The notes under the pieces: model-generated
Seen by the model: the letters and a program-made list of their open reading frames with translations, nothing else
The model's database searches: none
What the model was told of the DNA's origin: nothing
DNA from: Cladophialophora immunda
Lineage: Eukaryota > Ascomycota > Eurotiomycetes > Chaetothyriales > Herpotrichiellaceae
Direction: 5' to 3'
Length of the DNA: 64,000 bases
NCBI RefSeq assembly: GCF_000835495.1
Contig: NW_015622542.1
Span: forward strand, 766,485 to 830,484
Shown: positions 11,134 to 43,160 of the stretch, one piece after another
How the letters are laid out: each line of letters begins with the position of its first letter
Numbering within the stretch: position 1 is the stretch's first letter
Program-made: the position numbers and the translations under genes

Positions 11134-11828
11134 CACCCGTTCATCCTTGATAAATGTCGTCCCCAATGGCCGTATGTAACGAAGCTCAGGAGGTAGAAAA
11201 ATATCCCGGCACGGAACGCGAGAATCGCAACGTCGCTAACGTAACACACGGCTCGACATGCGGCATGTGCAAAGAAAAGGATTACGATGAATTGGCTTAA
11301 CCTCATGTCAGATGCACGGAGCAGGCTTTCTCTCAAGATCTTCTTCTGTACTACGGACTGCCGCTACTATACTGCAGATGTGAGATGTCAAAATAAGGCA
11401 AGAGTTTAGACGGACCTTCGACGGGACCTCGACACTCTCAACAGATGTTTGGTCGCGATTGCATCGCCCCTCCCATCTAGGGAGCCGAACTTGGACCTCA
11501 GGCGTCGAATGTTATGGCGCCCCAGAACCATTTTCGGCTCCTGGACCTGAGGGGGGGGGACAAAAACGTCACCAAACAGTGTGTGAGTGGGCAATGGCCG
11601 AGATGTGCTAGAGAAGCCCAATTCGAACACTTCCAAGGCTGCATTGTATATATCCCTGCCCAGGGACTCGCACTTCTGAATGCCTTCTTGGAGGTCGGTC
11701 TTTCCAGAGCCTCCATATCGGCGTTCGAGTGGGTATACATTGCACACGGCGAACCGATCTGGATTCTTTTTCTCTCGGAGACATCTGCGTTGTACAGTCT
11801 CGGCCGTGGCACATCTTTGCGTCAAAAC

Positions 11829-13577
11829 ATGGCGACAGCGAACGACTCTCCCTCCGAGCCTGTTGTCAGTGACAAGAATCCCGGGACGCAAGAAGTCCAT
11901 GGCCAGGCAACGCCAGAACAGACCCCAGAGCCTGAAGCTGCCCGCCTGGCCGAACATCAATCTAGTGTGGATGGTGGCACCGGGCCAGACAGTGGGAGTC
12001 CGCAGTCTCCCAGAGATGGATCCAGAGGTGCCATGGAAGGGAACAATGGCGCGACCCAGGAGCAGATTAATGCCGTGGAGAGAGTGATGAAATGCTCGGG
12101 TACGGAGTACCGGCAGGTTCTTGGCCTCCCAGATGAAAATCCAAATAAAGAAGAGGAGTCGAGAGAGGTAATGGCGGCCTTTAAGAAGCTTGGGTGCTTG
12201 ACGCATGAAAAATATAACAAGGCGAATCATGCTGCGGAGGCATTTCACAGTAAGTATGACCTCTTGAATTTCCGGGGACATGGAAAACTGCAGACTAACA
12301 ATGGCACGCCTGCTCGGGATGTAGGAGTTAACGATGCGGCAAAGCACCTCGGAATCAACGAAGCTGCGATAGCGACGATGAGAGATTGGGATGGTGTGGA
12401 GGATAATTTCACCCTGCCAGCAAATGACACAAGCCATGAGAGTTCTGGTAAGGCGCCATCGAACGGACAAGACACGGACATGGGAGGCTCCGACCAGCCC
12501 ACGATCCCACAAATGACCGGTGATCACCGCAAAGCGTTTGATGTCGCTGGGGGGCTGCTGCAAGTCCTCACGAACGATCCCGATAACGAGAGAGCGATCA
12601 ATGGCCTACAAGAGGTGAACCGAAAGATACTGGAGATTAACACGGCGATTGGCTTCCCTAACTCAACTCGATTCGTGGTCGATTTCCAGGCCTATCAAGG
12701 GGTGTTTAAGAAGGCGCTCCCTCTCCTAGCTCAATGGAAGCAAAACTCTGATAAAAAGGCTAAGGAAGAGCTCGAATTGATGAATCAGTGGCTTGACAGG
12801 CTCATTCAAGATCGCGGTTACCCTACACATTGGAAGATCGACATACCACGGCCGTCCACGCCGTCTATCCCAAACCCGCCTGTGCAGTCAACAGCCCCAA
12901 CAACAGCCCCAACAACAGCCCCAACAACAGCTCGATCTCGATTGGGGAGATTGCCGAAATCCCTAGCTTTCAACGAAAGGGACGGATATGTCCTCGAGGG
13001 AGGGGTCGAGAAGGAATTGTACGGTTACATGAAGGCGGGATACGGTCATCGAGTTCTACTTCGACGAGATGGTCGTAACGGGTACGACATCTTCGAGTTC
13101 GTCCGGGCGAGCAAATTCGGGAAAAGCTTCGTCGAGAGGAACCAGCATGTGCTAAGCGGGACAGCCATCAAGGCCGGGACTAAAGCCTCGCTACGGGGAA
13201 TGAGCTGGAAACGCGTGGAAATTTTTGGCGTCGCTCCCGTCAGAACCGACTTTAATGACGAGGCGATGTTGATGGCTTGGGTGGCATTTCCTCAGAGAGA
13301 ACCGACCTGGTACTGGCGGTCGTATCTAGGTGAAGAATTTGGAATAGATGCGGTGGACGAAAAGTTAGACAGCTTTAGGAGCAAGGCAGGGCAGCGCCCT
13401 CGAGCTGTTATAGATGAGGACGAAGCTGAAGAAAGCAATTATGATGAGGAAGAGGAAGACAAAGAAACCAGATTGCAATATCTGAAGGAGGAATTGAAAA
13501 GGTTGGAACAGGGAACAGCGAGAAGCAGACGTTCGTCGAGCGCCAAAAGGTCAAAACCGCGTCGAAGAGCCCGATAG
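11829..13577 (+). CDS. J-domain-like orphan protein, 582 aa
   Basis: Single exon from ATG 11829 (MATANDSPSEPVVSDKN); the frame is open further upstream, but that part lacks protein character. Residues 1-75 are disordered. Residues ~80-140 have a DnaJ-like layout (EYRQVLGLPDENPN, EVMAAFKKLGCLTHEKYNKA, AEAFHSKYDLL), but the diagnostic HPD is replaced by HEK, so Hsp70 stimulation is unlikely. Residues ~230-340 are helical, followed by a (PTTA)n linker. Residues ~370-540 form a compact region (LEGGVEKELYGYMKAGYGHRVLLRRDG … WVAFPQREPTWYWRSYLG). An acidic patch and an Arg/Lys/Ser-rich tail suggest nuclear or nucleic-acid contacts. Function unknown. Confidence 0.75.
   Translation: MATANDSPSEPVVSDKNPGTQEVHGQATPEQTPEPEAARLAEHQSSVDGGTGPDSGSPQSPRDGSRGAMEGNNGATQEQINAVERVMKCSGTEYRQVLGLPDENPNKEEESREVMAAFKKLGCLTHEKYNKANHAAEAFHSKYDLLNFRGHGKLQTNNGTPARDVGVNDAAKHLGINEAAIATMRDWDGVEDNFTLPANDTSHESSGKAPSNGQDTDMGGSDQPTIPQMTGDHRKAFDVAGGLLQVLTNDPDNERAINGLQEVNRKILEINTAIGFPNSTRFVVDFQAYQGVFKKALPLLAQWKQNSDKKAKEELELMNQWLDRLIQDRGYPTHWKIDIPRPSTPSIPNPPVQSTAPTTAPTTAPTTARSRLGRLPKSLAFNERDGYVLEGGVEKELYGYMKAGYGHRVLLRRDGRNGYDIFEFVRASKFGKSFVERNQHVLSGTAIKAGTKASLRGMSWKRVEIFGVAPVRTDFNDEAMLMAWVAFPQREPTWYWRSYLGEEFGIDAVDEKLDSFRSKAGQRPRAVIDEDEAEESNYDEEEEDKETRLQYLKEELKRLEQGTARSRRSSSAKRSKPRRRAR
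12890..12932 (+). repeat. 12-bp tandem repeat inside the J-like gene
   Basis: About 3.5 copies of a 12-bp unit (CCAACAACAGCC type) encode repeated Pro-Thr-Thr-Ala in the linker of the host gene. The copies are identical, suggesting recent slippage. Because the unit is a multiple of three, length changes would not disturb the frame. Confidence 0.8.
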
Positions 13578-15530: not shown

Positions 15531-16660
15531 ATGCCGTCACCCCCGTGTTCCACGATTTTCTGTTTCGTCCTGCCCATCTTGACAAGGATGGCGACTACGG
15601 CAGCCGCACCACTCTGTTCAGACACTATTAACACGGCAGGAGGCGGGATTCCGGACAGCAACGAGCCTCCCATAGTGTCAGCGGAAGCGATAAAGGAATT
15701 CCAGCTAGCCCTCTTTCTCGAGAACCTGGAATCATCCTATCTTCAAAGCGGACTTCAAAATATTTCTACCTGGGGAACGGCGGGCTACCCAAATGACACG
15801 ATCGAAGTTCTTAGCAAGATTGCCGCCGTAAGTCGACCATCCTGGCTCTCTGTCTGTCTAACATCTTGTGCCTTCTTCAGCAGGAGGAAGTACACGTTGC
15901 AACAATTGCGAACCTGCTCAACGGCTATGGAGCCCCTGTGATTGCACCTTGCCAGTATTCCTTCCCGGTAGCGTCTATTGATGAGTTCATCGCCCTTGGC
16001 GATATCATCACCTCAGTGGGCATCAGCGCACTTATCGGGCTGGTCGATCGAGTCTCATACACTGATCCTGGGATTGTCAATACGGTGTCGTCGATCGTGA
16101 CAGTCGAGTCCCGCCATGACGCCTTCCTCCGCCATGTGGGTAGCAGAGTCCCTAACCCAGCTCCATTTGACACCGGGATTAGCAGTATCTGGGCATACAA
16201 TTTGGCTCTTCCATTTATCGTGCCTGGATCGTGTCCAGCGGAACTCCCACTACCAATTCTGCCCACGTTAACGGTGTCAGCCCCGACTACGGCTGATAAC
16301 AGATCCTCAGCGGCCACGGGAATAGCGTCGAGCATCGCACCATATCAAAATACCACCACGAGCCCCGCTACCGCTGCGAACACCACTGTGGTTCCGTCAG
16401 AAATGGCATTCTCGTGGGATCCGATGCAGATGCCATTCGTTTTCGAGCAGGGAAAACAGTTGTTTGTGGGCTGGACCAATCAGCTGAATGTGCCGGTGTA
16501 TACGGTATTATCGATCGTTGGTCAAGGCAGGGGAGTTGCGGATGTACCGCAAGGACTCAATGGGGCGGTGTTTGCAGCGATCACAAGTCAATTGCCTGAT
16601 AATGACTATGACCTGGCCCTCGCAACCATGGCGGGCCCGGTTGCGTTGTCACTCTCTTAG
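15531..16660 (+). CDS. rds1: Ferritin-like secreted protein, Rds1 family
   Basis: Two exons, 15531-15827 and 15881-16660, flank a 53-nt intron (GTAAGT donor, TCTTCAG acceptor; phase 0), giving 358 residues. A signal-like N-terminus (CSTIFCFVLPILTRM) precedes a Ferritin_2-type helical domain: EFQLALFLENLESSYL in helix 1, then EEVHVATIANLL after the splice, then SVGISALIGLVDRV and ESRHDAFLRHV. The E...E..H pattern of di-iron ferritin-like folds is visible (E/Y helix, EEVH, ESRH). The C-terminal third is Thr/Ser-rich with a small beta-rich end. Family knowledge: fungal Rds1-like stress-response proteins, usually extracellular; the activity is not established. Gene symbol by similarity only. Confidence 0.85.
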
Positions 16661-22469: not shown

Positions 22470-22633
22470 TCGTTCCATTCTCGGCTCCCTCTCTAAGGGT
22501 TTGGCGTCTCAATCATCTACTATAGCTCATTATATTTCAGCTTCACTCTTCCCTATTTCTCAACCCTTGTGAAAACTCCCTTCCCCTTCGTCCATTATCG
22601 TTGTTCCGCTTCATATCATTTCTGACATTTAAT

Positions 22634-24444
22634 ATGGATATTACTCTAGCGTACGCGATCGGCTTGGGCGGCTTGCTATTTCTCCTCATTCTTATGAACT
22701 TCCGCCAGTGGCTTCTACTCGGTTGGAAGAAGGTCGTTCCACTTTCCCTCAAATATTTCGTGTATCCACAGATTCGTCACCGGTTGACGGGGGCGTGGCA
22801 CCCGGCTGGTGTCATTGCAGGGCTTCTGTACAGCGGAGTCAACGTCTTTTGTGTCTGCTTCAAAGTGCGCTCTGTCTCGGTGGCCGGTCTGCGAGCGGCC
22901 AATCTCTCGCTCATCAACCTGATCCCTCTCATGGCGGGCCCTCATCTGAGCTTTCCAGCCGATCTCTTGGGCGTCACATTACGCACGTACCGGCGATTTC
23001 ATCGCTCCTTAGGGCTAATGTCATCGGTCCTGTTGGGCTTCCACGTTCTCATTGTGCTTGTGGAGAAGAAACCATTTCCCCTGCGGATCTCGGAAAACCT
23101 CTTTGGATTGATCGTACGCTTCCTAAAAGGTTCATACACCCGGTCAACAGAATTGACAAAGATCAGGGGACAATATCATTGGGCATCCTCGTGCCTCTCT
23201 CACACCCATTTCTTCACCGTCCTTTCTACGAGTTCTTCCTTCGCCTGCATCAGATATTGGCGATCACTGCGACATACAGCATATGGAGCCACTTGCGGAA
23301 GAGCCCTTCTCTTCCACAAAAGTATATTTACATTACGATGGGTACATTCTTGCTGACCGTTCTAGTCCAATGCGGACTCATCATGTACCAAACCGCAGTG
23401 GTCGGGAATGGGTTTGCCAGAGTCAAGGTTACCAATATCAAAGAGATGCTGAGCAGAGAGCATGTCATCATCGAGCAAGAAGTGATGGCGCTCCAAGTCC
23501 GCCTCGCTTCGCCACTCCAGGTGAAGCCGGGGCAATACGTCTACTTATGGATTCCCTGGTTTGGCCGCCTGCAGAGCCATCCCTTCATGATAACTTCCTG
23601 GTCGGACGAAAGCCTAGAGTCCTTGGACATCTTCGTGGAACCACGTGACGGCCTGACCAGAAAACTTTTGCGATATTCGGACTCCAGCCGCGAGGGTGGT
23701 ACTTTATACAGAGCTTTGTTCAGTGGGCCTCATGGGACCACTGTCCCAGCTGGAACTTATGAGACGGTGCTAATGATGGTGGATGGCTTCGGTATCGTCT
23801 CGCACCTTCCTTACCTAAAGCAGCTCATTCATGAATATAATGCCTGCAAGATTCGCACTCGTCGAATCCATTTAGTGTGGCAATTGGAGACGAAAGGTAC
23901 GGAGACTATCAGATTCCACTTCTCTCGATGCATGACAACGCTCAACTGCATTAGATCTGGGGTATGCCGCAGCAGACCTGTTGAATGATGCGCTCGCCGG
24001 TGACACACTTAGTGTCGATAATAGCACCGGCGATATGAACGACGAGAAGTCAACCAAGGGGAAGGTAAGCTACAATTAACTATATCACGAAAATTCAACC
24101 TAACTTGGCGCATAGATTCTCAGCATTTCGATCTACATCCACTGGGCAAGCCGGGATAAAGTGCCATTCGGGAAACGTGCGATCGCATACAGCGGCCTGG
24201 CAGATGTGGAAACGATTTTCCAAGAAGAGGCGGCAGGAAAACATATCAAAAGGGTACAGGAGGAATCGGGTGAGAGGGGAGAGATGTTGGTGATGGGTAA
24301 GCCCACTTGACTGACTTAGGATCCCTACTTATTGATACAGTGTCTGGAAGCACCGACCTTCGAGATCGCTTGCGAAGTCTAGTCCGGCCCATGGCAGATA
24401 AGAAAGTGAGGCTGGAGGAACTAGAATATCAGCCTGGTGATTAG
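22634..24444 (+). CDS. Ferric reductase, FRE family (flavocytochrome)
   Basis: Five exons: 22634-23113, 23167-23896, 23955-24064, 24116-24296, 24341-24444; all junctions are GT-AG and in phase, giving 534 residues. The transmembrane ferric-reductase domain (about residues 5-240) carries two haem-ligand His pairs with the classic 13-residue spacing: H123/H137 and H188/H202. An FAD-binding segment follows with HPF at 298-300 (HPFMITSW), preceded by VKPGQYVYLWIP. The NADPH-binding part contains VDGFGIVSHLPYL and IHLVWQLET. Family role: electrons from cytosolic NADPH pass through FAD and two haems to reduce extracellular Fe(III) or Cu(II). FREs are recurrent Starship cargo. Convergent with the DUF3723 gene 228 bp away. 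Gene appears intact. Confidence 0.9.
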
Positions 24445-24671
24445 ACGGTTAACCACTTCTAGTTGGGCCCTTGGTTATGCATAGGAGACTACGTCTTTTG
24501 TCGGCCCCTACCTAGTCGGCCAGATCATTCCTCGCAATCATCCTTTACATAGGCCGTGCGGGAAGTAAACAGGACGAGTATAACAAGTATTAACCGGGTT
24601 TATCTAGCGGAGATATGTCGACAACTTAGACTGAATCAAGGACCAATGCTAGAAATTGATTTTCTATACAC

Positions 24672-27600
24672 TCAGTATCGATTTCTTTTGCTAGCAGGAG
24701 CATCAGGATGGAGTCTGGTGTCGATAATCTTCCCTCGGCTTATGTATAAGGTGTTGTTTCCACCTTTGATGATGTCTTCAAACTTTGTCAATGGGGTTAT
24801 CATGTGGGACCCAGCGAACACATTCCACGGCTTTTCGGCGTCTTTTCTGGTGTATTTCCTCAGGAATCGCATGAATTCTGCCGGTTCAGAGGGGTCAACG
24901 TCATGTGAGGGCAAATTTTTCCAGTCTCCGCCACCAACACTCCCATCGGACATTTTGAGATGGATACGAATCTTCTGAGGGTTGGGCGTTGCCGTGATCG
25001 AGTTAGCAGGGTCTGCTGGTTGTTGAGTGGTACTCGCAATGACAACCTCGGCTGGTCGGCGCACGGTTTCGTTTTCATCGACCTTCCCAATGTCGATCTT
25101 TGTTGTTCGTTTTCGACGCATTCCCTCGTCTTCGTTTACATTCCTCTCTTGCTGATCCCTTCCCAGTTCTCTCGTCATCTTTTGCTCCACTCTCAATTCG
25201 GGTTTCTCGTTCTTGAGTTGCCTTGCTCTCTCTAGTCTTGCAAGTCTTTCCCGTCTCCGACCTTCTTCTTTCGCGGCTTTCTTTCGTGTATCTCTCGCCG
25301 TCCTCTCTTCATTTTCTTGCTCCCTTAGTCGATCGTCTACATTCCTTTCGATGTTTTCCCATCTTGCCCGATCACCCCCGTCGGGGGGTGGCTCGTACCG
25401 CGCTTGTCCATCGCTTCTTAGCCCTTCCTGCACTTCTTGCAAACCCTCAACTTCGAAGGCAATCGGTTCTTCCCCGTCACGAACTCCATCCTGAGCGTGT
25501 GCGGGAGGCGAAGTCTCCTGCGCTCGTTCCAGGTCTTCCATTTCCTCTACCCTACCAAAGTCGATCTGAGTGTCGCGTTTTCGATCTACCTCTCGCATTC
25601 CCGATGATGAGCTCGGATCCTGTACCAGGCCGGGGTCTTCGATTGCTCGTCCGTGATCCAGGCTTGGTTTCTTTTGGTTTCCCTGCTGCAGTTCGACCTC
25701 GCCTCCGTCATTTTCCTGGTCCTGGCTCACACGTCTACCCAGCTCTTCGAGGCTCTCCTGCCCTCTCTCGAGTATCTCGGCCTGCGGAAGGGACGGAATG
25801 TTTTTTCGTTCGGCTGAGTCCCCCATATCCGCTGTGGAGATGCGTTCTACCTCCTCTGCAGCGGCGTTTGCCTGTTTGGCTGGTGACAGCTCGCGCTGCT
25901 GGTCGGTGATCAACATTGGCGGAGGCTCTTCGATATCGTTCACGGACCCATCCCTCCCTGGAATGCGTTCCTGTGGCTCCTTTTCGATCACGCGCTGTGG
26001 CGCCGACTTCTCTGCGTTCGTCGATTCGACTGTTGGCGACGGCGACTCGGGAGCGAATAGAGACTCTTCTCGATCCCGCCTTATCTGATCATCGATCACA
26101 ACCCGTTCTGCGTCATCCAGAAGGGCGTTATCTGTAGAAGGTGAAACCGGGCCCCGAGCCGTCTCTCGCTGCGCTGTTGTCAGTGCCTCATCAATCCTCT
26201 CCCATGCAGCCTGTGGGGCTCGTTCTTTATCAGTCGCGTCCTGCTCTCCCTGGTCGACATCTGGCCCTTTGTCTCCGTCTCTCCCGTTTGCGGTTCTCTC
26301 CATTGTCTGTCGCTCATCTAGTTCCCCGTGGGTTTGCTCTGTCATCTGCTGCTCTTGTATTATGAGACGACCCTGTGCTTCTGCCGGGGACACGAATTTC
26401 GGTGCAACCACCGCTTCGTAGCTTGTTGGAACTTCTGATGTGGTAGTCTCGTGAACAACGTTCTCGGTCGCTATCTCCGCGATGTCTTGATCCTCGTCTT
26501 GTCGTTCTGTTGCTGTGAACTGCCCCACTCCCACGATCTCGTTACGATCCGGGGTTGAAGATTGGTTCTGCAATAGCATAGGAATATTGCTTTCCTTGAG
26601 CCCATCAGGGTTGATTTGCGTGGTTTGGCTCGGACTTTCCGGTCCCTTAGGCACCTCTTGTTGTTTTGGTAGAACACTACTATCCTTAGCAACCCTCAGC
26701 AGCACTGCATCTAATATATCCTTCCTCTTTCTCACACCAATTGCCCCTTTCTTCTGAGAAGTCTTCCTTTGCTTATTTGCCGCCTTTTTCTTTTGAATTC
26801 GCCCATTTTCCCGACCGTCTCGCCTTCCAGTATGTCGGACCTTATCTATTTCATCAGCTATCTCTGCCTCGGATAGCCATTCCGACTCAGCTTGTTCCTC
26901 TATGGTAAGCATTTGCCGATCAAGCTGGGTCGCAGGAAAGTTTTCAGCCTCCCCCACGGTGTTACCAGCTTGCAAACCCTGCTGCGAGGTATCCTGGGCA
27001 TTGCGAGGACCTGAGAGATGTTCGACATGACGCTGCTCCAGACCCTGCTGATTTGGCCTCGGTGAAGGTTCTTTACCAATCATCCCTTGATCGGCCATAG
27101 GTTCGGAAGGATGAGACATCGCCTCGCTTAAGCATAGACTTGTTGGCTTCTCAAAAAAGGCAAGAATGACAGACCGCCGCACAAATGAAGATGTCATCTC
27201 TTCAAACTCTCCACTACGTACGGTGTACAAAGGTTCCAGAAAGAGGCATAGTTTGTCTTGTTCATGATGACAACTCCAAGGGATGCCGCATCGCCTGATA
27301 GGTGGATCAGAGTCTTCAGAACCCGATGACGGTGACTCCTTTTGCGGTGCTCGCGATGACGTTCTGAGTTCCGTCAGTTCACGAATCTCATCGGACTCAA
27401 AGCCTAGCTTATGGGCATGCGCGGCAAATTCGTGTAGGACCTCGGGGTCCGCTTTCATTGGTCTTGGCTTTGCAAGTAAATTCTTTTTCTTAGGTTCGGC
27501 CGGCATGCTAAGGTGATTACGCATGGCGATGAGAAATAGCTGTAAAACTCCCAGATTCATTTGATCGGCCTCAGTTCCTGGCTTAGAAACGAAAGTATGA

Positions 27601-28877
27601 TCGGTTTTCTGAATCAAGCACTGGCCGGTCCGCTGGTTAATACCGGTGAAAACGTGCTGTTCCAGTACGTAGAGGATCGTGTCGCCGGGTGATATAGGTA
27701 TTAACCGTTTGACGCAGTCCGCTGGGCCCTTTAGCCAGTTCAAATCCTCGAAGAAGGTGAAAAATGAGGGGACCAAGCGATCTTTTGTTCGACGACACAC
27801 TTCGGCCCAGATCTTTTCGCGATCTTGGTCATTGAAAGTTCCGAAGATTTTTCCAGCCTTCAACTTCCTATATAGATCCCGAGCATCCGCTTTGCAAGCC
27901 CCAGGGGCGGTACCCTCAAGTTCTTTGACGCTGTTTTCGTCGACTTTCTGCATCGCATTCCGTTCTACCCCAACGCTCTCGTACCAAAAATCTTTCATGA
28001 AATCGAGGCGGTATAGGATGCACTACAATAATTGGTGAGAACCGAAATGGCCCGCAAGGTGGAACTTACCTCGTCAACACCCATTGGAAGTATCTTGTGC
28101 CAGGTGCTTGTTCTCCAACCGCTCCAAAGCCCGACAACGTCCAGCAGGGCATCACAGGCCGCGGTTATTTCACGGTGGCGCAGGAGCTGCTTGACATTGC
28201 GGCGTCCATGAGCTGACAAACGTGCCCAGCACCGTTTTTCAAACCACCAATTGTCGATTCGCAAGTCCCTTTGGAGGTGATACAGCCGAAGTTTTCGATA
28301 GATCTCTCCAGGATGCAGACGGTCTTCATTCGAGTATTCCTCCACCAGAATCGTCCTGAGCTCTTCTGTGAGGTCTAACAATCATATATCAATGCAATGT
28401 CTCGCTATACGAGAGTAAGTATCTCATACCTGCAGCATATAAATCTACGATCCACCTCCGGTCCGCGACAGGAAGAACCTTTGCGGCAGCAAGAGCGCGG
28501 CTCTGTCCATCTAGGCATCTGAGCTGGTAACCTGGTGGAAATTCGAGCTCGGGATATTCAGCTCGAGGGCCAACAAAAAGTTCTTTGATCGAGCGCTGTG
28601 AATGTCGAAGGGCGGCATCGAGACTCTGCTTATCGATTTGGGCTGGAATATGATTCGGCAACGGCAGCGGCCAACAACCTTCATCCTGAAATGCTTTCTT
28701 CAGCCTCTCCACATTGCTCTTCAGCTTCGTGGGATCTTTCGTCTTAATCTCTGGAAACGACAGCACCTCAAGTCGGACACTGACCATGCCCTTACACTTG
28801 AGAACTTTTTCCGTTACGATGCTGCGTTCTTTCCCCAGAAGTCGAGCCCGTCGCATTTTGGTGTCCATACTGGACAT
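24672..28877 (-). CDS. DUF3723 protein, 1367 aa, three exons
   Basis: Exons 28877-28430, 28374-28070 and 28022-24672, with introns of 55 and 47 nt in correct phase. The conserved N-terminal ~500 residues show the DUF3723 pattern: LRCLDGQSRALAAAK, VEEYSNEDRLHPGEIYRKLR, DALLDVVGLWSG, ILYRLDFMKDFWYESVG, RDLYRKLKAGKIFGTFND, FFEDLNWLKGPADCVKRLIP and MNLGVLQLFLIAMRNHL. The middle ~600 residues are disordered and very rich in Glu, Arg, Gln and Ser. The C-terminus has the usual small domain (KIRIHLKMSDGS … DVDPSEPAEFMRFLRKY). Function is unknown; DUF3723 genes are among the most frequent Starship cargo. The start could also be the Met at 28868. No break was found over 4.1 kb. Confidence 0.9.
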
Positions 28878-28974
28878 GAATCTGCCTAGAGGTTCATCCT
28901 CTCTTAAATATCTCTGTAGGGGTCCTAAAATGGATTCTCAACTGAGGCGCTTGAATGGTCTCCCTCAGCAGAAC

Positions 28975-29317
28975 CTGCCCCCAGACGCAATCTGTCCTCA
29001 GCCATAACCTGTCCTCAGTCGAACCTGTCCCCGGACACAACCTGTCCCCAGCCATAACCTGTCCTCAGTCAAACCTGTCCCCGGACGCAACCTGTCCCCA
29101 GCCATAACCTGTCCTCNNNNNNNNNNNNNNNNNNNNNNNNNNNNNNNNNNNNNNNNNNNNNNNNNNNNNNNNNNNNNNNNNNNNNNNNNNNNNNNNNNNN
29201 NNNNNNNNNNNNNNNNGCAACCTGTCCCCAGCCATAACCTGTCCTCAGCACAACCTGTCCCCGGACACAACCTGTCCCCAGCCATAACCTGTCCTCAGCA
29301 CAACCTGTCCCAGATGC
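28975..29317. repeat. Minisatellite with ~17-bp subunits in a ~50-bp higher-order unit, spanning an assembly gap
   Basis: Tandem copies of a ~17-bp motif ending AACCTGTCC(C/T)C alternate in three flavours (CAGTCGAACCTGTCCCC; GGACACAACCTGTCCCC; AGCCATAACCTGTCCT), making a ~50-bp unit. At least eighteen motif copies are visible on both sides of the gap. The array starts about 100 bp upstream of the DUF3723 start codon, in its promoter or 5' leader. Confidence 0.9.
29117..29216. other. Assembly gap (100 N)
   Basis: Exactly 100 N within the tandem array, the conventional placeholder for a gap of unknown length. The true array is probably longer than shown. Confidence 0.98.
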
Positions 29318-29329
29318 AACCAGCAATCC

Positions 29330-31674: not shown

Positions 31675-32116
31675 TTAACCATAAGAACCGGAGACGATAT
31701 TTTGCGGGGGAGTAACGTCTATGTACCCCTTATCATTGGCCGTAATTGTGATTTGGAACCCATCGATACCTATGAATGTACATAGTGCTGTTCCTGACGT
31801 GACATCAATCTGAGAGACACTAATATCGTTGCAGTTGCCGATGGAGTACGAAGGAAGTGCGAGACATTCGATGGAGCCCAAGTCGTGCGTCTGTCCATCT
31901 CGTGGGAGCTCAAAGCCAAGTGTCTGCGTGCTAGCGGTAAATACGACATCTAATGGCCAGTCTTCACTCCTCCGCTGAGACTCAAGACCTATTTGGGTAT
32001 TACTCGATACCAACCCGTGGATGTCGGGGTAGGGTGGGATAGCTCGTCCAACGGACATTCAACCAAAGAAGAACTACGACAGTCTTGCCAATAGAGTTAG
32101 AGAACACCATGTCCAT
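31675..32116 (-). CDS. Small secreted-type protein, frame of signal peptide uncertain
   Basis: The main frame (MSVGRAIPPYPDIHGLVSSN to stop at 31675) gives 127 residues with beta-type pattern and two cysteine-bearing segments (GSIECLALPSYSIGNCND and SGTALCTFIGIDGF). A signal-like peptide (MDMVFSNSIGKTVVVLLWL, ATG at 32116) lies directly upstream but one frame off. No intron of sensible length restores the phase, so either the signal peptide is coincidental, a frameshift has occurred, or there is an unusual splice. Small Cys-containing secreted proteins of this size are often effectors or surface proteins; nothing specific is recognised. Confidence 0.45.
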
Positions 32117-32439: not shown

Positions 32440-33072
32440 ATGGCGAGGACGAAACAGACCGCACGTATGATTAACCTCTTTCATTCATTGTCCCTAATTT
32501 ATATTGATGGTGACGTACAGGGAAGAGCACCGGAGGTGTCGCCCCGAGGAAAGACTTGAGAAGCCTTGCAAAAGGCCAGCTCTCAGGGAAACGCCTCCCT
32601 GACTCCACGGGCAGTGTAAAGAAACCGCATCGATACAAACCAGGTAGGCTTCTGCTGCTCTCCTCTATTATCTCTTTTTTGAGTGGGTGAAGTTATGATT
32701 AACGGTGACTAGGAACGGTTGCTCTAAGAGAGATTCGTCGCTATCAGAAATCCACAGAGTTACTCATTCGCAAGCGTCCCTTTCAACGGCTTGTCCGTGA
32801 AATTGCAGAAGATGTGAGAATTGGCCAATTGAAATGGCAAGGGGATGGTCTTCGGTTCCAGTCGACGGCAATTGAAGCTCTGCAAGAAGCTCTCGAGTTA
32901 TATCTTGCGAGCCTATTCGAAGATTCTAATCTCTGCGCTATCCACGCAAAACGAGTTACTATTCGTGAGCCAGTTTCTACTTCCTACGAGAGGACATTCT
33001 TGATTAACGTCTTTAGAATCAAAAGATATACAGCTCGCACGACGTTTGCGTGGAGAAAGAAACCCCGTTTGA
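32440..33072 (+). CDS. Divergent histone H3 variant, 151 aa, four exons
   Basis: Exons 32440-32464, 32521-32643, 32713-32964 and 33017-33072; introns of 56, 69 and 52 nt are GT-AG with consensus donors (GTATGA, GTAGGC, GTGAGC), and the last has a GATTAAC branch. The product starts [14 protein letters not shown] as canonical H3 and keeps [54 protein letters not shown] and [12 protein letters not shown]. Differences from canonical 136-residue H3: K14 is Val; the tail between residues 19 and 35 is rewritten with 5 extra residues, so the ARKS motif around K27 is lost; loop 1 gains 8 residues ([17 protein letters not shown]), including a Trp; and the end is ERNPV. K4, K9 and the K36-K37 pair are kept. 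Expected role: nucleosome component in the nucleus. Could be a CenH3-like or specialised replacement H3. Confidence 0.9.
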
Positions 33073-34830: not shown

Positions 34831-35814
34831 CTATCCGTCAATACTTGCGGTAAGCTCGCCGGCGGAGTCTGTTGTCTGCGTCAGTAGGACCCCAACGGTC
34901 ACCGAATTCCCTGTAGTTATGGTCACCACAGTAGTCTCTATCGTTTCTGTGGAGACTGATGTGAGAGTGGTTGTCCCCGTTATTGTAGTTGCTATTGGCC
35001 CGATCACCGTCGTCAGTGTAGTTGGAATAACTCCTCCGAACGGTAATGAGAGCGTTTTAGGCTCGACAGTAGTTTCCGAGCTTATAGTCTCTATGGTCGT
35101 AAACAAGGAGGTTTGTAAGTTTGTAAATGTTACGGTCTCTGGGGGCCCTTCTGAGCCTGTAGCCACCGCAGTCGTAGGAGAGCCATCCGAGCTTGTAGTT
35201 GCCACAGTTATAGGAGAGCTTTCGGAATCTGTGGCTATCGCGGTCGTGGGTATAGATTCTGAGTTTATAGTCGGTATAGCCGTTGGAGGACTTTCTGAGA
35301 CGCTGGTGACGGTTTGAGGAGGACACAATGTCAGAGTCAAGTCGACCGACACATCACAGTTTTGTATGGCAAAGTTATCGTTTGGTTGATTGAAAGCGTT
35401 TGGGCAGATGGCCACACCGGGGTCGCAGGTGATGTTAGAGCAGTCTCCAGAAGATGGTGAGAGATAGAGGCCCCAAGTTTCGAATGGATACCCATTAATA
35501 TTCGAGATGTCGTAATAGACTCTCGGATTGTCAGGGTGGTAGGTATACTCGAACTGGGTAATGAAGAGGTCATCGGGGACTGTGGCAATTTTTAATGAGA
35601 TGCCTCCGAGGGGGTCCGGGTTCATTCGATAAGTCTCATAGTAGTAACCACCATTTGGCTCCAGATAATTAATTGTGTCGTTAGGGACGTTTGCGACACT
35701 CCAAACAAAGACGTCGACATCACACTGGTTGTCGATGAAAGCAGTCCCCAGACAAGCAACGGAAGAGATGCAGAACAGTGCCACGGCAAAGATGAGTCGT
35801 GTCAAACCAGCCAT
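34831..35814 (-). CDS. Secreted BYS1-domain (thaumatin-like) protein with Thr-rich tail
   Basis: Single exon, 327 residues. The Met at 35814 (MAGLTRLIFAVALFCISSVA) exposes a clear signal peptide and is preferred over the longer frame to 35928. Residues ~20-175 match the BYS1/thaumatin-like layout: GTAFIDNQCDVDVFVWSV, NGGYYYETYRMNPD, GISLKIATVPDDLFITQFEY, YYDISNINGYPFETWGLYL, followed by cysteines in GDCSNITCDPGVAICPNAF and NCDVSVDLTLTLC. The C-terminal ~150 residues are Thr/Ser/Val repeats typical of O-mannosylated stalks. Family knowledge: BYS1-like proteins are abundant secreted fungal proteins; function mostly unknown. Confidence 0.8.
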   Translation of the reverse strand: MAGLTRLIFAVALFCISSVACLGTAFIDNQCDVDVFVWSVANVPNDTINYLEPNGGYYYETYRMNPDPLGGISLKIATVPDDLFITQFEYTYHPDNPRVYYDISNINGYPFETWGLYLSPSSGDCSNITCDPGVAICPNAFNQPNDNFAIQNCDVSVDLTLTLCPPQTVTSVSESPPTAIPTINSESIPTTAIATDSESSPITVATTSSDGSPTTAVATGSEGPPETVTFTNLQTSLFTTIETISSETTVEPKTLSLPFGGVIPTTLTTVIGPIATTITGTTTLTSVSTETIETTVVTITTGNSVTVGVLLTQTTDSAGELTASIDG

Positions 35815-36615
35815 GTTGAAGGCTGTGGTTTGCCTGAGAGCCTGTTGGTAAAGGCGGAGTCTGTTTGATGGAGACGCGGTGCTGTAGTGTCTTTTAACAC
35901 AGAAGAAGTGGAATGTCGAGTAAGACAACCGGCCTTCGGTGATCAGGTGAGATCATTGAGGGCGACAGCGTCCAGAAACAGCCCCTGAGTAATGGAGTAT
36001 GCGGAAGATCCAAATCAAGTAGGGAGCCCAAAATGGTCCCTTTTTCAAGTCGCTGAGCTTACAGAGAGTGATCACCCCGACCTGTTGCGTGGGCTACTAG
36101 GACGATGCAAACGTGGGCTTTGCAGATTATCACTTGGAACGCAACGAGGTCCCCAACCCATGGATTTTAAGGTTCGAAATAGGGCAAAATATCTGAAGCT
36201 GCTGAATTTCCATATTGTAGGACTCGGTTCAAGGCCAAAGGGCTTCGACTGAATAAGTTAATACAATTCCCAAGATACGTCATAATCTCCTTGAAGCCCG
36301 TACAGATACACCTTTTTCCCCTTTACCATTGCCTCGCTTGCTACATCTTTACCTATGGTTACAGATGTTTTCAATTGCGGCTTCCCTTTTGCAGACACAC
36401 TCAATTGTTTAGGCTCCATACTTCATTAGTAGGCTAGGCAAAATACGTTCAAGCGTTACTTCAAATTAGGCCAATCGGCGTGAACTTCAACTCGACCGAA
36501 TACATGCACTTACAAAATAATACACATGACGTTTACTGTACCCTTTGAAAATGTGGAAACTTGAAAGCGGCACTGAATAACTCCTGACCAATCAGGAGAA
36601 ACTGGCTTATGGGTG

Positions 36616-39068: not shown

Positions 39069-42000
39069 TTAATGAAGCTTATGTACAATACCTCCAAGGC
39101 CAGCACTCTCATGAAGAATTTCGCGCGCCTTCCCACCGTCCACTCCCATATCTTCCTCTATCAACTTGGCTGCTAGCTCCGGAACCAAAACCTTGCTGAC
39201 GAAGTCCGTGAACCCCGTGCGGCGCAAGGCCTGGTTTCGACGTCTTTGTCTCGGAAATTGAGACTCGAATTTTCGAATGATCTGGGTTCTCCTGGATAGT
39301 GTTAGCGAATCGTCGACCGCGTGGCTCAAATAAGTCAGGGTAATTCGGCTAGACGCATCTCTTGAATCGAATTCAGCATTCACTTACATGATTTGCGATC
39401 CCCGGGGCCCATAATAGCCAGCTTCACCGTTTCCGTTGCCATTTGTTCGAGGGACCTTTCGTTCTCTGTCCAACTTCACTCGAGAGAGAAACGGTGACGA
39501 GATCTCTCCGTCCAATATGCCGCCAAGAGCTGGAAGAAATTTGCGAATGCGCGCATCTAGTCTCCGCCAACCGATGCGAGGATATCCACGCCTGACCCAC
39601 TCCAGTTCCGCTGCATGCTGCAGCTCGGCTTGGTGCTTGTGTATCTCGGAGAAAGCATTTTGGTGCAGTATATTCCAACCCTCGAGCCGCCGTCGCGGCG
39701 GCAAAGATGCCTTGGCTTTGCGGTGGGGTCGTTGACACGACGTATTGACGCATCGTTCCAAGGTTGTAGTGGCTTCTGAATCACTGTCTGATACGAGAAT
39801 AGGTCCATGCGGACTATGGTAAATTGGCAGCTCCACCTTTGGCTCCAAGACTTTAGGGTCCAGACATTGAACGTCAGGACTGAGGTCCGATGATTCTTGT
39901 ACAGAAAAGGGAACATTGGGACCTGACCGATCAGCCTGGTCTGAGGTTAAAAGAGAATGCTCGCCCGAGCATTCTTGAGCTATTCTAGTGCGAAGGTTAG
40001 AGTGTGGCGTCGAACTCACAATCTTGGGCGATGTGAGTATTCGTAGTGTAACTGCATCAAACTCTTCAGTGGAGTCTCGAGTGACTTCGGTGTCCTTTGA
40101 ATGCGATAGGGTCGGCGAGCTGGACAAGGATCTTACCGGCGTGACGGGAGCTGACTCCACGGGAGCCGCAACGACCTCGGGACAGACCTTATTTGAGATC
40201 ATTGGCAGCGCGATATCATCTTTGACATATGTCGGACAGTTGGTAAGAGGCGGCAGAGAAACCACAGAGAGAATGAGGGAACTTGGCTGCTTAGTAGACC
40301 TCTGCTTCCTCCGCAGCTTTCCTATTGCGCGCGGACGGACCGCAGTCGAGTTTGCCGGTTTGCCGGTTTCCGGTGTCTCATCGATAAATTGATATTTCTC
40401 GGTAGGGATCGAAGGGTCGATAGGGCCGGCGGTGAGTTCGTTATTGAGAGTCTGACGGCCGCGTTTACAGGAGGGTACGCTGTCGATATCTTCTGCCATC
40501 ACATCCTGAGACGATCGCTTGAATCCCTTGTTGAACTGCGCGCAGTGGACGTCCTGGAGGTGATATCGCCGCCTCAGGGCATTCTCGCATGGGATATCAC
40601 ACCAAGGAATTGAGCAACCTACTGCGCTTCTCCGATCCAGCTCTTCGGTGCATTTGGTCACATGAGATATCCAATAATCCAGTCTTGAGAATTGTTGCAT
40701 TCGATCTCTCGCCGACAGCTCCGTGTTGCCTAGGCAGATCGGGCAATAACCGAAAGCGCCTAGGGTACCGCCATAAATGAGCGGATCGCACTGGACGGGG
40801 ATTGTCTGAGGCGCGACGAGGTGGCTTTGACAATGCTGCTCCCATGCATCCAACCCGACGATCCAGCGGTTACAGAGGGAGCACAACTCTGCAAAGCCGT
40901 TCGTTCCCGAAAGGTATTGCTTGTGACACGTATAGATGTGCTTCCAGCTCGGTGTGGCCGAATTGGGAGGCGAAGACAAAGCCACCCCTAAGCCAGCTTT
41001 ACTTGGCCAACGTCGAAACGCCCTGTGGGGGCCAGGTCTCTTGGGGGTGGCACACGCAGCTAGCTCCACGCTTAACTCAGTCGGGTGGCAATGACACTTG
41101 TCGGGCTCCAACCCCAGTCTGACGGTCACCTCCTTCTCCTGTTTGCAGAGGGCGATCATGTCTTGAAGGACCTGACGACCTTCGGAGCTTCTCAGACAGC
41201 CAACCTCGAACATGCTCGTCGCCAGGCGGCTTCGTTCGGGCATTAGGTGGCGGATACGCTGGAAGCGGGACCGGTAGCCCCCGATGGATCGGATTTCAGC
41301 CCTGGCTTCCCAGGGTCGTTCACATGGTTGAGTCTTCTGCGCGTGACGAAGTCCCTTTTTTCTCATTTTCTGCCTATTCCTGTAGATCTCACGGCGGCGT
41401 CGGTCGCGGTCCTGTGATGGAGGCTGCGTTTTCAAGAGTTTGAGTTCGTTGTCCATCGAGGTAAATTCGGGGCTCGCTTCCAACTCCGCCTTCTGCTCCG
41501 CCGGTAGACAGTGAAAGAGATCGGGATTGCGAGCTACCGTCATGCCACGAAACAGGTCAGCTACAATAGTCCGAATCTTCCCTCTGAGGTATGCATCTTG
41601 GCCATCGGTGCCAGGGTTATTAGGCTGGTAATGCTGGCGGTGAGTGCGTTCGTTCCATTGCCCCCCGTGGCCCATTCTCTGTGCTGCTGAATAAAGGGAA
41701 TCTAGGTGTTTCATTAGAAGTGGTCACAATAACGCTAATATGGTTCATATCGCAGCCCGGGAAAGGGGACCCACCGATGAGATGAAGCCCTTCAGCTCGA
41801 AAGTCATGGATCGTGGGTGGCTTCATATAGTCCGCACGGCGACCTAAATCGTTCAGTCGCGTACTATACGAGTTTGCCTTCTCAATCTCGGTTGTAGCGC
41901 CTTCATAGAAAGGACAGTTGCAAATGCCGGGTTCCCAGAAAAGTTGATAGACTTCCTTTTCGGGTGGCGCCGGAATATTGAAGACGTCGTCTATCGTTTT

Positions 42001-43160
42001 ATAGTCTCGAAAGGCACCTCGCGCTAGACACATTGCTAGTTTCGGGAGAATCGGGTTTAAGAGGAAAGGTCGTGGCTCCGAGCCTTCGTGGATCGCCTGT
42101 TCTGGCCTGTTTTGACGGTCCATGGTGTCAATCAAGACCCTAGTAGGACCATAGGGAGCCTTGGATCCTAGATGACTAGGAAACTTACCTTTTGTCTGGT
42201 GTCCACGTCATGCCCTTTGCGTCCCGCGTAAGCTGGGCAGCGAACTCGGGCTTTCCATGCTCGTTCCGGAAGACGATGAAGATAATATCCTAAGTATATG
42301 TTATAGTTAAGATATTGCAAATCTTACCAGAGGGGACGGGGCACGAGATGTCAAAACGCGCTCTAGAACAACTCACCCGATGGTATAGACCACGCCCGGA
42401 ATTGGCACGGGCAGTTGACTCGAGATACTCCCCCACCCGTGCAGAGGTAAAGCCGTAATCGAGGGTCTCAGACCATGTCGATACCCGGATCCCAGGACGC
42501 TTATATTCAAACCAATCGCGCTCCCAGAGCTGGGTCCCCAGATGAACCAAGTGGTTATCCGACGCGTAACGGCGAAGCCGCTTCGAAGCAGGCAGACCAC
42601 GTTTCTTGATTTGCTCTTTGATCCACTACACTTCATGAGTACTGCCCAGGTTGAGAGAGAATGAGGGAGAGAATGAGGGAGAGAACTTGTCTGGCGGGAC
42701 ATACGTTCGTAACAGAAAGCGTCGTATTGCGAGGAATGGGGTCATTCTGCCGGCGGAACTGGGCCGTAAAGTCTTTCCACACTTGTCTGACGGATTTTGC
42801 CGAGGGAAGATCATCTTCTCCCTCACAGCCATCGAGTCCCCAGACGATTCCCTTAGTAAAGTGTTTGAGAGTTTTTAGATCGTAAGCATCTTTAACGGGG
42901 TCTTTGTGGTTTTTAGTACAATAGCTGTGTATTCGTGGCGCGTACAGTTAGCATACGTAGAAGAATGAGCCCAGCAGAGCGGTGGTGAAAGGTGACACCG
43001 GAAGATCATACTCAGCCCATATGTTCATAGCATCTCTGTATCGTCTCTTTGTTCCGTCTTCAAGAGACTTGTGGACAGGTTTGCCATCGATCCCTGTCTT
43101 ATCCAACTCCGAACCTCGTTGTTCTGCTCGGTCGAAGAAGCCCTTCCGACCTTTCGCCAT
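39069..43160 (-). CDS. DUF3435 tyrosine recombinase (Starship captain), 1206 aa
   Basis: Seven exons read by hand: 43160-43012, 42924-42705, 42625-42377, 42289-42189, 42139-41775, 41701-39388, 39291-39069; all junctions are GT-AG and in phase. Family landmarks: KPVHKSLEDGTKRRYRDAMN, DLKTLKHFTKGIVWG, VWKDFTAQFRRQNDPIPRNT, GTQLWERDWFEYKRPGIRVS, EPRPFLLNPILPKLAMCLAR and GTDGQDAYLRGKIRTIVADL. The recombinase core is intact: Arg186 in FTSARVGE (box I), His351 and Arg354 in HDFR, the MGH motif (371-373) and nucleophile Tyr386 in RTHRQHY. C2H2-like zinc ligands follow (CSLCNRW…EQHCQSHL and a second finger). Role: site-specific integration and excision of the giant element. The Met at 43160 was chosen over 43232 because the extra residues are hydrophobic and atypical. 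Confidence 0.9.

What the first reader, a model, noticed from the sequence alone, without database searches (positions are those of the whole stretch)
32440..33072. An intron-containing histone H3 variant carried as cargo
Seen: canonical head ([14 protein letters not shown]) and C-terminal helix ([12 protein letters not shown]), but K14 is Val, the K27 region is rewritten with 5 extra residues, and loop 1 gains 8 residues with a Trp ([13 protein letters not shown]). Known: CENP-A differs from H3 by a longer loop 1 with Trp and a divergent tail, but this protein keeps most canonical H3 helix residues. Inference: it is neither canonical H3 nor a standard CenH3. A mobile element carrying its own H3 could mark its chromatin, resist silencing through K9/K27, or act in centromere-like behaviour. 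I know of no described Starship with an H3 gene.
Basis: partly seen in the sequence, partly recalled or inferred. Interest (0 to 1): 0.93.

Follow-up and report, generated by a model that had tools for sequence, protein, structure and literature searches.

The report
Transposon-borne histone H3 variant
A black fungus carries, inside what looks like a giant mobile DNA element, an intact extra gene for the DNA-packaging protein histone H3 that has lost several key control sites and gained a surface loop, so the element may influence how its DNA or its host's DNA is packaged.

Summary
Window 32440-33072 encodes a 151-aa histone H3 with three GT-AG introns, K14V, a rewritten K27 region (+5 residues) and an 8-residue loop-1 insert. 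A separately annotated Exophiala dermatitidis protein, P0023, is 92% identical end to end and shares these features. The genome is Cladophialophora immunda (the adjacent DUF3723 protein is a 100% match), with separate canonical H3 and CENP-A genes.

The gene lies between a DUF3435 tyrosine-recombinase gene (39072-43160) and the Starship hallmarks DUF3723 and ferric reductase, so it is probably Starship cargo. Element ends and an empty site were not found. A second, different intact H3 variant lies 6 kb from another ferric reductase-DUF3723 pair on another contig: 2 of 3 strong DUF3723 loci have an extra H3 nearby (chance about 1e-5, post hoc).

Synonymous sites are saturated against canonical H3 while 111 of 136 residues are unchanged: purifying selection, not decay. 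Both orthologs keep K4, K9 and K36 but lose K14, K23, K79 and the K27 motif and replace G34. I infer a nucleosome-competent variant refractory to PRC2 and Dot1. Its use to the element is untested. No report of a Starship-borne H3 was found in the searches made.

The parts
32440..33072 (+). Histone H3 variant gene, 4 exons, 151 aa
   Evidence: ortholog P0023 92% over 100%
32465..32520 (+). Intron 1 (56 nt, GT-AG), inside the codon of H3 R8
32644..32712 (+). Intron 2 (69 nt, GT-AG), inside the codon of H3 G44
32965..33016 (+). Intron 3 (52 nt, GT-AG), inside the Gln codon of RVTIQSKD
39072..43160 (-). DUF3435 tyrosine-recombinase (captain-like) gene; aligns with all of P0124, stops only in stretches that P0124 lacks (read as introns); C-terminal RTC4-like part
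   Evidence: orthologs P0124, P0125, P0126
24672..28868 (-). DUF3723 gene (PV07_02626), Starship accessory kind
22601..23988 (+). Ferric reductase gene (FAD_binding_8 over, Ferric_reduct under the cut-off), Starship accessory kind
34831..35928 (-). Bys1-family gene between H3 variant and captain
   Evidence: PF04681 2.3e-35
31675..32058 (-). 127-aa ORF upstream of the H3 variant; a relative lies 5 kb from a degenerate H3 copy on contig C6
36007..36238 (.). Stretch 74% identical to DNA 5 kb from a degenerate H3 copy on contig C3

Best explanation
An old, functional, non-centromeric histone H3 variant carried as cargo of a Starship-like giant element in Cladophialophora immunda. SHOWN: intact gene; same protein in E. 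dermatitidis; saturated synonymous sites with conserved protein; position between a tyrosine-recombinase gene and DUF3723/ferric reductase; a second, different H3 variant near another DUF3723-ferric reductase pair. INFERRED: it pairs with H4 and is deposited by the normal H3 machinery, because the alpha2-alpha3 half that makes the H4, Asf1 and H3-H3 contacts (recalled structural knowledge) is nearly canonical. INFERRED: nucleosomes holding it can carry K4, K9 and K36 methylation but not K27me3 at the usual motif, K79 methylation or acetylation at K14 and K23; the changed G34 should impair K36me3; the loop-1 insert shows a new surface (KWQGDG) for a partner. INFERRED, weakest step: this favours the element, by keeping its chromatin out of PRC2 silencing or by shifting host gene expression.
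For: Gene model and ortholog. dN 0.19 with dS beyond correction against canonical H3; 82 of 111 unchanged residues use a different codon. K14V, K23L, K79R, L65R, G90E and loss of the ARKS motif around K27 are shared by both orthologs; G34 is S in one and R in the other. KMT6-like (SET+CXC) and KMT1-like (Pre-SET+SET) genes exist in the genome. The captain-like gene aligns over all 1195 residues of P0124; DUF3435 E 1.5e-9 and 1.4e-9 in orthologs P0124 and P0126. In E. xenobiotica the captain and a DUF3723 protein have locus tags 8 apart (LTR96_010859/010867; also LTR92_011133/011141, species name cut in the listing), with equal longest-contig length. 2 of 4 non-canonical, non-CENP-A H3 loci (the two intact ones) lie within 8 kb of one of three strong DUF3723 loci, against 0 of 5 other histone-fold genes within 100 kb. 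G34R reduces H3K36me3 and K36ac in fission yeast (PMC5515577, start of abstract in listing).
Against: No element ends: shared words no longer than in shuffles. DUF3435 below cut-off in the window ORF and not listed in the genome search. No expression data. Linkage of P0023 to a captain in E. dermatitidis is unknown. The loop changes fastest: 6 of the 12 differences between orthologs lie in residues 82-96, so its contact may be lax. The rewritten tail stretch does hold lysines, though not in the ARKS motif. The AlphaFold model was poor (pLDDT 51). The association test is post hoc, with the 8-kb distance chosen after the distances were known.
Confidence: 0.6

Rival explanations
1. Old chromosomal H3 paralogue of black yeasts, around which or beside which a mobile element happens to have inserted; it serves the host (for example stress or morphology genes, as the Candida H3 variant does).
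For: A variant H3 with a host role is known in CTG-clade yeasts (PMC6703697, abstract and passages). The E. dermatitidis copy's surroundings are unknown.
Against: It lies between captain and DUF3723, and a second H3 variant sits near a second DUF3723-ferric reductase pair. Among 120 listed hits the insert-bearing H3 occurs in one other species only.
Confidence: 0.22
2. Host-effect cargo: the variant acts in trans as a natural oncohistone-like H3, changing K36/K27 marking and host expression in a way that pays for the element.
For: G34 replaced (S or R), K27 motif and K14/K23/K79 lost, yet the core is deposition-competent by sequence. G34R phenotypes in S. pombe (PMC5515577 and PMC7872514, listings only). 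A Starship-type element of Zymoseptoria carries a sirtuin histone-deacetylase gene (PMC11231334, passage), so chromatin genes as cargo have a precedent.
Against: No expression or phenotype data; G34 differs between the two orthologs, so the exact residue is not constrained.
Confidence: 0.25
3. Captured H3 copy on its way to becoming a pseudogene.
For: Two other H3 copies in this genome are degenerate (C6:2844492-2844811 with 2 TGA and shifted frames; C3:4481026-4481238 with 4-5 stops).
Against: Open frame, all splice sites, saturated dS with conserved protein, and 92% identity to another species with no gap.
Confidence: 0.06
4. A second centromeric H3 (CenH3-like) used by the element for centromere-like behaviour.
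For: Longer loop 1 with a Trp; the tree cannot exclude grouping with CENP-A (p-AU 0.126).
Against: Canonical-like alpha2 and alpha3, F84 kept, H3-type N terminus; a separate CENP-A gene exists at C4:824650-825033.
Confidence: 0.05

Closest known systems
Canonical fungal histone H3
   Same: 111 of 136 aligned residues identical to this genome's H3; H4 and tetramer faces kept (inference)
   Different: +5 tail, +8 loop-1 and +2 C-terminal residues; K14, K23, K27 motif and K79 lost; G34 and G90 changed; different intron positions
CENP-A / CenH3
   Same: longer loop 1
   Different: H3-type N terminus, F84 kept, H3-type alpha2-alpha3; the genome has its own CENP-A
H3V-CTG of Candida (PMC6703697)
   Same: non-centromeric H3 variant in an ascomycete, a group in which that abstract calls H3 variants mostly absent
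   Different: no link to a mobile element was seen in the passages read; its sequence was not compared here
Starship giant transposons
   Same: DUF3435 recombinase gene, DUF3723, ferric reductase (hallmarks as listed in a passage of PMC10175614)
   Different: no H3 cargo in the Starship texts searched by term; ends not determined here
Swordfish element of Zymoseptoria with a sirtuin gene (PMC11231334, passage)
   Same: a giant mobile element that carries a chromatin gene
   Different: a histone-modifying enzyme, not a histone
Histones encoded by large DNA viruses (recalled)
   Same: a selfish element that carries a histone gene
   Different: there often whole or fused core sets (recalled), here a lone H3 of fungal type

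Membership tests
Starship | DUF3435 tyrosine recombinase (captain) | tested here: met
   Orthologs P0124 and P0126 hit PF11917 at 1.5e-9 and 1.4e-9; window gene aligns over all 1195 residues with R, HxxR, H, Y stretches (catalytic pattern recalled). The window ORF alone is below cut-off and one search did not list it.
Starship | captain is the first gene at one end, cargo downstream | tested here: inconclusive
   Captain is on the minus strand with H3, DUF3723 and FRE downstream, but the element ends are not known
Starship | flanking direct repeats / target site | tested here: inconclusive
   Longest shared direct words 11 bp; ten shuffles give 11-14 bp
Starship | recurrent accessory genes DUF3723, FRE | tested here: met
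   FRE within 4 kb of DUF3723 at 3 of 3 strong loci. These genes are common, not universal: absent from Gaeumannomyces Starships (PMC12134995, passage)
Starship | presence/absence polymorphism, empty site | not testable with these tools
   No second C. immunda genome or fungal relative could be fetched
CENP-A / CenH3 | single CenH3 of the genome | tested here: not met
   CENP-A gene at C4:824650-825033
CENP-A / CenH3 | CenH3-type tail, LRWQ and MQKD/RIRG core residues as in this genome's CENP-A | tested here: not met
   Variant has [23 protein letters not shown]
CENP-A / CenH3 | centromere localisation | not testable with these tools
   needs ChIP
functional H3 variant | intact fold-bearing frame under purifying selection | tested here: met
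functional H3 variant | incorporation into nucleosomes | not testable with these tools
   monomer AlphaFold model of P0023 uninformative (pLDDT 51)

The most novel reading that the evidence does not exclude
A class of fungal giant transposons carries its own H3 variants so that the element packages itself in nucleosomes that cannot be marked by PRC2 (K27), Dot1 (K79) or the main acetyltransferases, but can still carry K4/K9/K36 methylation; this would be a eukaryotic mobile element that brings its own chromatin. The two different H3 variants near DUF3723-ferric reductase pairs in one genome would be two cases of this class.
Probability: 0.2. Interest if true: 0.93.

Novelty: new variant of a known kind. 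Interest (0 to 1): 0.76.

Why it matters
H3 is among the slowest-changing eukaryotic proteins, and H3 variants are described as absent from most ascomycetes (PMC6703697, abstract). An H3 variant that travels with a giant transposon would mean that a mobile element can carry a histone, and possibly chromatin state, between genomes. It gives a concrete test of how large transposons live with heterochromatin: in Verticillium the plastic regions, Starships included, are enriched in genes with H3K27me3 (PMC12289983, passages), the mark this H3 cannot carry at the usual site.

Tried and rejected
CENP-A reading: rejected on sequence features and on the separate CENP-A gene; the tree alone does not reject it. 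Pseudogene: rejected (the second dN/dS method, YN00, failed on the saturated data). Loop insert as an unspliced intron: a GT...AG of about 28 nt can be drawn by eye there, but P0023 keeps the same length and the KWQGDG core, so it is protein. Close kinship of the C2 and C6 variants: not in the best tree, not rejected (p-AU 0.11). Element ends by shared words: nothing above shuffles. H3 or captain relatives in viral contigs: none for the captain; one locus with a 40%-identical H3-like stretch, of which I read 60 bases and no more. AlphaFold of P0023: low confidence. DUF3723 as a ParB-like fold (by eye, recalled motif): no support from Pfam at E<=10, PDB profile search or Foldseek; the N terminus was weakly modelled. 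Papers: the listings of searches (capped lists; one search showed 10 of 144) name no Starship-borne H3; the Starship texts that mention histone H3 were checked by term.

Full report
WHAT IS THERE. The stretch 32440-33072 (+) is a four-exon gene for a 151-residue histone H3. Pfam PF00125 finds the locus at 6.8e-28. The protein search scored 7990 candidates and listed 120; P0023 of Exophiala dermatitidis, 151 aa, matches at 92% over 100%, with 139 of 151 identical positions and no gap. The 22 entries ranked above it are 223-264 aa long and hold repeated H3 motifs, so they score on two copies. The next listed protein of 151 aa or less, P0062, scores 209 bits against 294 for P0023. Among the 120 listed, only P0023 has KWQG; a loop-1 pattern found 6 residues in 149 stretches, 14 in P0023, 9 in P0110, and did not match two rows (P0022, P0082). 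A lower-scoring or unannotated ortholog could exist: no protein identical to C. immunda's own variant was listed either.

ORGANISM. The neighbouring DUF3723 protein is 100% identical to PV07_02626 of Cladophialophora immunda, on a contig of 7,068,955 bases, the length of the window's contig C2.

OTHER HISTONES IN THE GENOME (11 PF00125 matches). Canonical H3 at C7:3142004-3142454 in two matches, with two introns at positions other than those of the variant. CENP-A at C4:824650-825033. The finding at C2. A second intact H3 variant at about C6:2799870-2800468, 146 aa with three introns of its own, ending in RGENIDYSR. Degenerate H3 copies at C6:2844492-2844811 and C3:4481026-4481238. The other four matches are an H2A-like, an H2B-like and a HAP5-like gene (names by eye) and C3:2470721-2470849, which was not identified.

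SELECTION. Against canonical H3, 111 of 136 aligned residues are identical, dN is 0.19 and dS is beyond correction (a second method failed); 82 of the 111 unchanged residues use a different codon. A gene that drifted freely for so long would not keep an H3. The tree (20 rows that I picked from the listing and this genome; degenerate copies left out) groups the variant with P0023 at 99/99, with a stem of 0.34 changes per column and tips of 0.024 and 0.063: most change is older than the split of the two copies. The tree cannot reject grouping with CENP-A (p-AU 0.126) or with the C6 variant (p-AU 0.11).

WHAT CHANGED. Of 14 lysines in canonical H3, ten are kept here: 4, 9, 18, 36, 37, 42, 56, 64, 115, 122. 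K14, K23 and K79 are replaced and the ARKS motif around K27 is gone, in both orthologs; K18 is R in E. dermatitidis. G34 is S here and R in E. dermatitidis; G90 is E in both; L65 is R in both. The rewritten tail stretch has lysines of its own, outside any ARKS motif. The loop keeps its length and the core KWQGDG, but residues 82-96 hold 6 of the 12 differences between the orthologs. The last third, from [10 protein letters not shown] to RRLRGER, is nearly canonical, so pairing with H4 and the H3-H3 contact should work (inference from known nucleosome structure). The genome has a SET+CXC (KMT6-like) and a Pre-SET+SET (KMT1-like) gene, so K27 and K9 methylation are plausible there. In fission yeast G34R lowers K36me3 and K36 acetylation (PMC5515577, abstract start seen).

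SURROUNDINGS. To the right, 43160-39072 (-), lies a DUF3435 gene that aligns over all 1195 residues of E. xenobiotica P0124; stops occur only in stretches that P0124 lacks, which I read as introns. R (SARVGE), HxxR (HDFR), H (MGH) and Y (HYQP) stretches are present; that these are the catalytic residues is recalled. The Pfam score is weak: 0.0024 for the window's largest exon, 1.5e-9 and 1.4e-9 for the orthologs P0124 and P0126, and the genome-wide Pfam search did not list it. To the left lie DUF3723 (28868-24672, -) and a ferric reductase (22601-23988, +). These are named among the characteristic genes of Starships in PMC10175614 (passage), though they were absent from Gaeumannomyces Starships (PMC12134995, passage). 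The H3 gene therefore lies between hallmark genes. In E. xenobiotica, captain and DUF3723 homologs carry locus tags 8 apart (LTR96_010859/010867; the same gap for LTR92_011133/011141) and share the longest-contig length 1,749,683, so that pair is likely one element there too; whether an H3 lies between could not be read.

RECURRENCE. The genome has three DUF3723 loci with strong scores and one weak match at C4:3276111; DNA matches to the DUF3723 start region at C3:4567614 and C4:3275635 look like remnants. All three strong loci have a ferric reductase within 4 kb; on C6 it is known by similarity only (E 1.1e-24), and the one piece scanned with Pfam gave no family. Two of three have an intact H3 variant within 8 kb: the window, and C6, where ferric reductase, DUF3723 and the second variant lie within about 10.5 kb. 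Of 4 non-canonical, non-CENP-A H3 loci, 2 are within 8 kb (binomial chance 9e-6, distance chosen post hoc), 3 within 60 kb, and 0 of 5 other histone-fold genes are within 100 kb; the unidentified C3 match was not in that control. Each degenerate copy also has, about 5 kb away, a stretch related to the window's element (C6:2838990-2839447; C3:4475973-4476205). Gene orientation differs between the two intact loci and the proteins are only distantly alike, so this is recurrent association and not one recent duplication.

WHAT WAS NOT SHOWN. No element ends: direct words of 11 bp are what shuffles give. No empty site, no expression, no protein data. The AlphaFold model of P0023 is poor (pLDDT 51), as expected for half of an obligate pair.

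MECHANISM. Most likely the protein enters nucleosomes by the ordinary route and makes nucleosomes that keep K4, K9 and K36 but cannot take K27me3 at the usual motif, K79 methylation or K14/K23 acetylation, with a new loop surface. Whether it acts on the element (self-packaging) or on the host (trans) is open. In Verticillium the plastic regions are enriched in genes with H3K27me3, and Starship regions did not differ from the other plastic regions in that mark (PMC12289983, passages), so an H3 without K27 has a plausible use, but nothing here tests it. A chromatin gene as cargo has a precedent: the Swordfish element of Zymoseptoria carries a sirtuin gene (PMC11231334, passage).

PRINT. The listings of searches of the open-licence library show no report of a Starship-borne H3. 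By term search, 'histone' does not occur in the main texts of PMC11623301, PMC12153272, PMC12134995 and PMC11905480; in PMC12289983 and PMC11231334 it occurs for marks, references and the sirtuin; in PMC13066641 the passage shown that holds 'histone H3' is a reference. Subscription papers and supplementary tables were not seen.

Noticed in passing
contig C6 of the same genome, about 2799870-2800468 (L003, L022-L023): A second intact H3 variant (146 aa, rewritten tail, C-terminal GENIDYSR) near a ferric reductase-DUF3723 pair.
   Followed up: partly
C6:2844492-2844811 and C3:4481026-4481238: Two degenerate H3 copies; the C3 one is 83% identical in DNA to the C6 variant over 218 bases.
   Followed up: partly
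window 22601-28868; C6:2789959-2793968; C3:284168-289997: A ferric reductase lies within 4 kb of DUF3723 at all three strong DUF3723 loci; the pair points inward at two and outward at one.
   Followed up: yes
window 39072-43160: The captain-like recombinase has a long C-terminal extension with Cys/His-rich (finger-like, by eye) stretches and an RTC4-like domain (in P0124).
   Followed up: partly
window 28070-28868 (DUF3723 N-terminal part): By eye the N-terminal stretch recalls ParB; Pfam, PDB profile and Foldseek searches gave no support.
   Followed up: yes
window 28963-29321: Short repeated units upstream of the DUF3723 gene.
   Followed up: no
window 11514-13577 and C2:763864-765199 (left of the window): Two related genes about 14 kb apart (41-46% identical).
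   Followed up: no
P0062 (Aspergillus keveii) and P0110: Other unusual H3s: P0062 has an altered tail and a C-terminal extension on a 7.7-kb contig; P0110 has a loop 1 longer by 3 residues.
   Followed up: no
window 34831-35928 and 15866-16660: A Bys1-family gene and a ferritin-like gene in or near the element.
   Followed up: no
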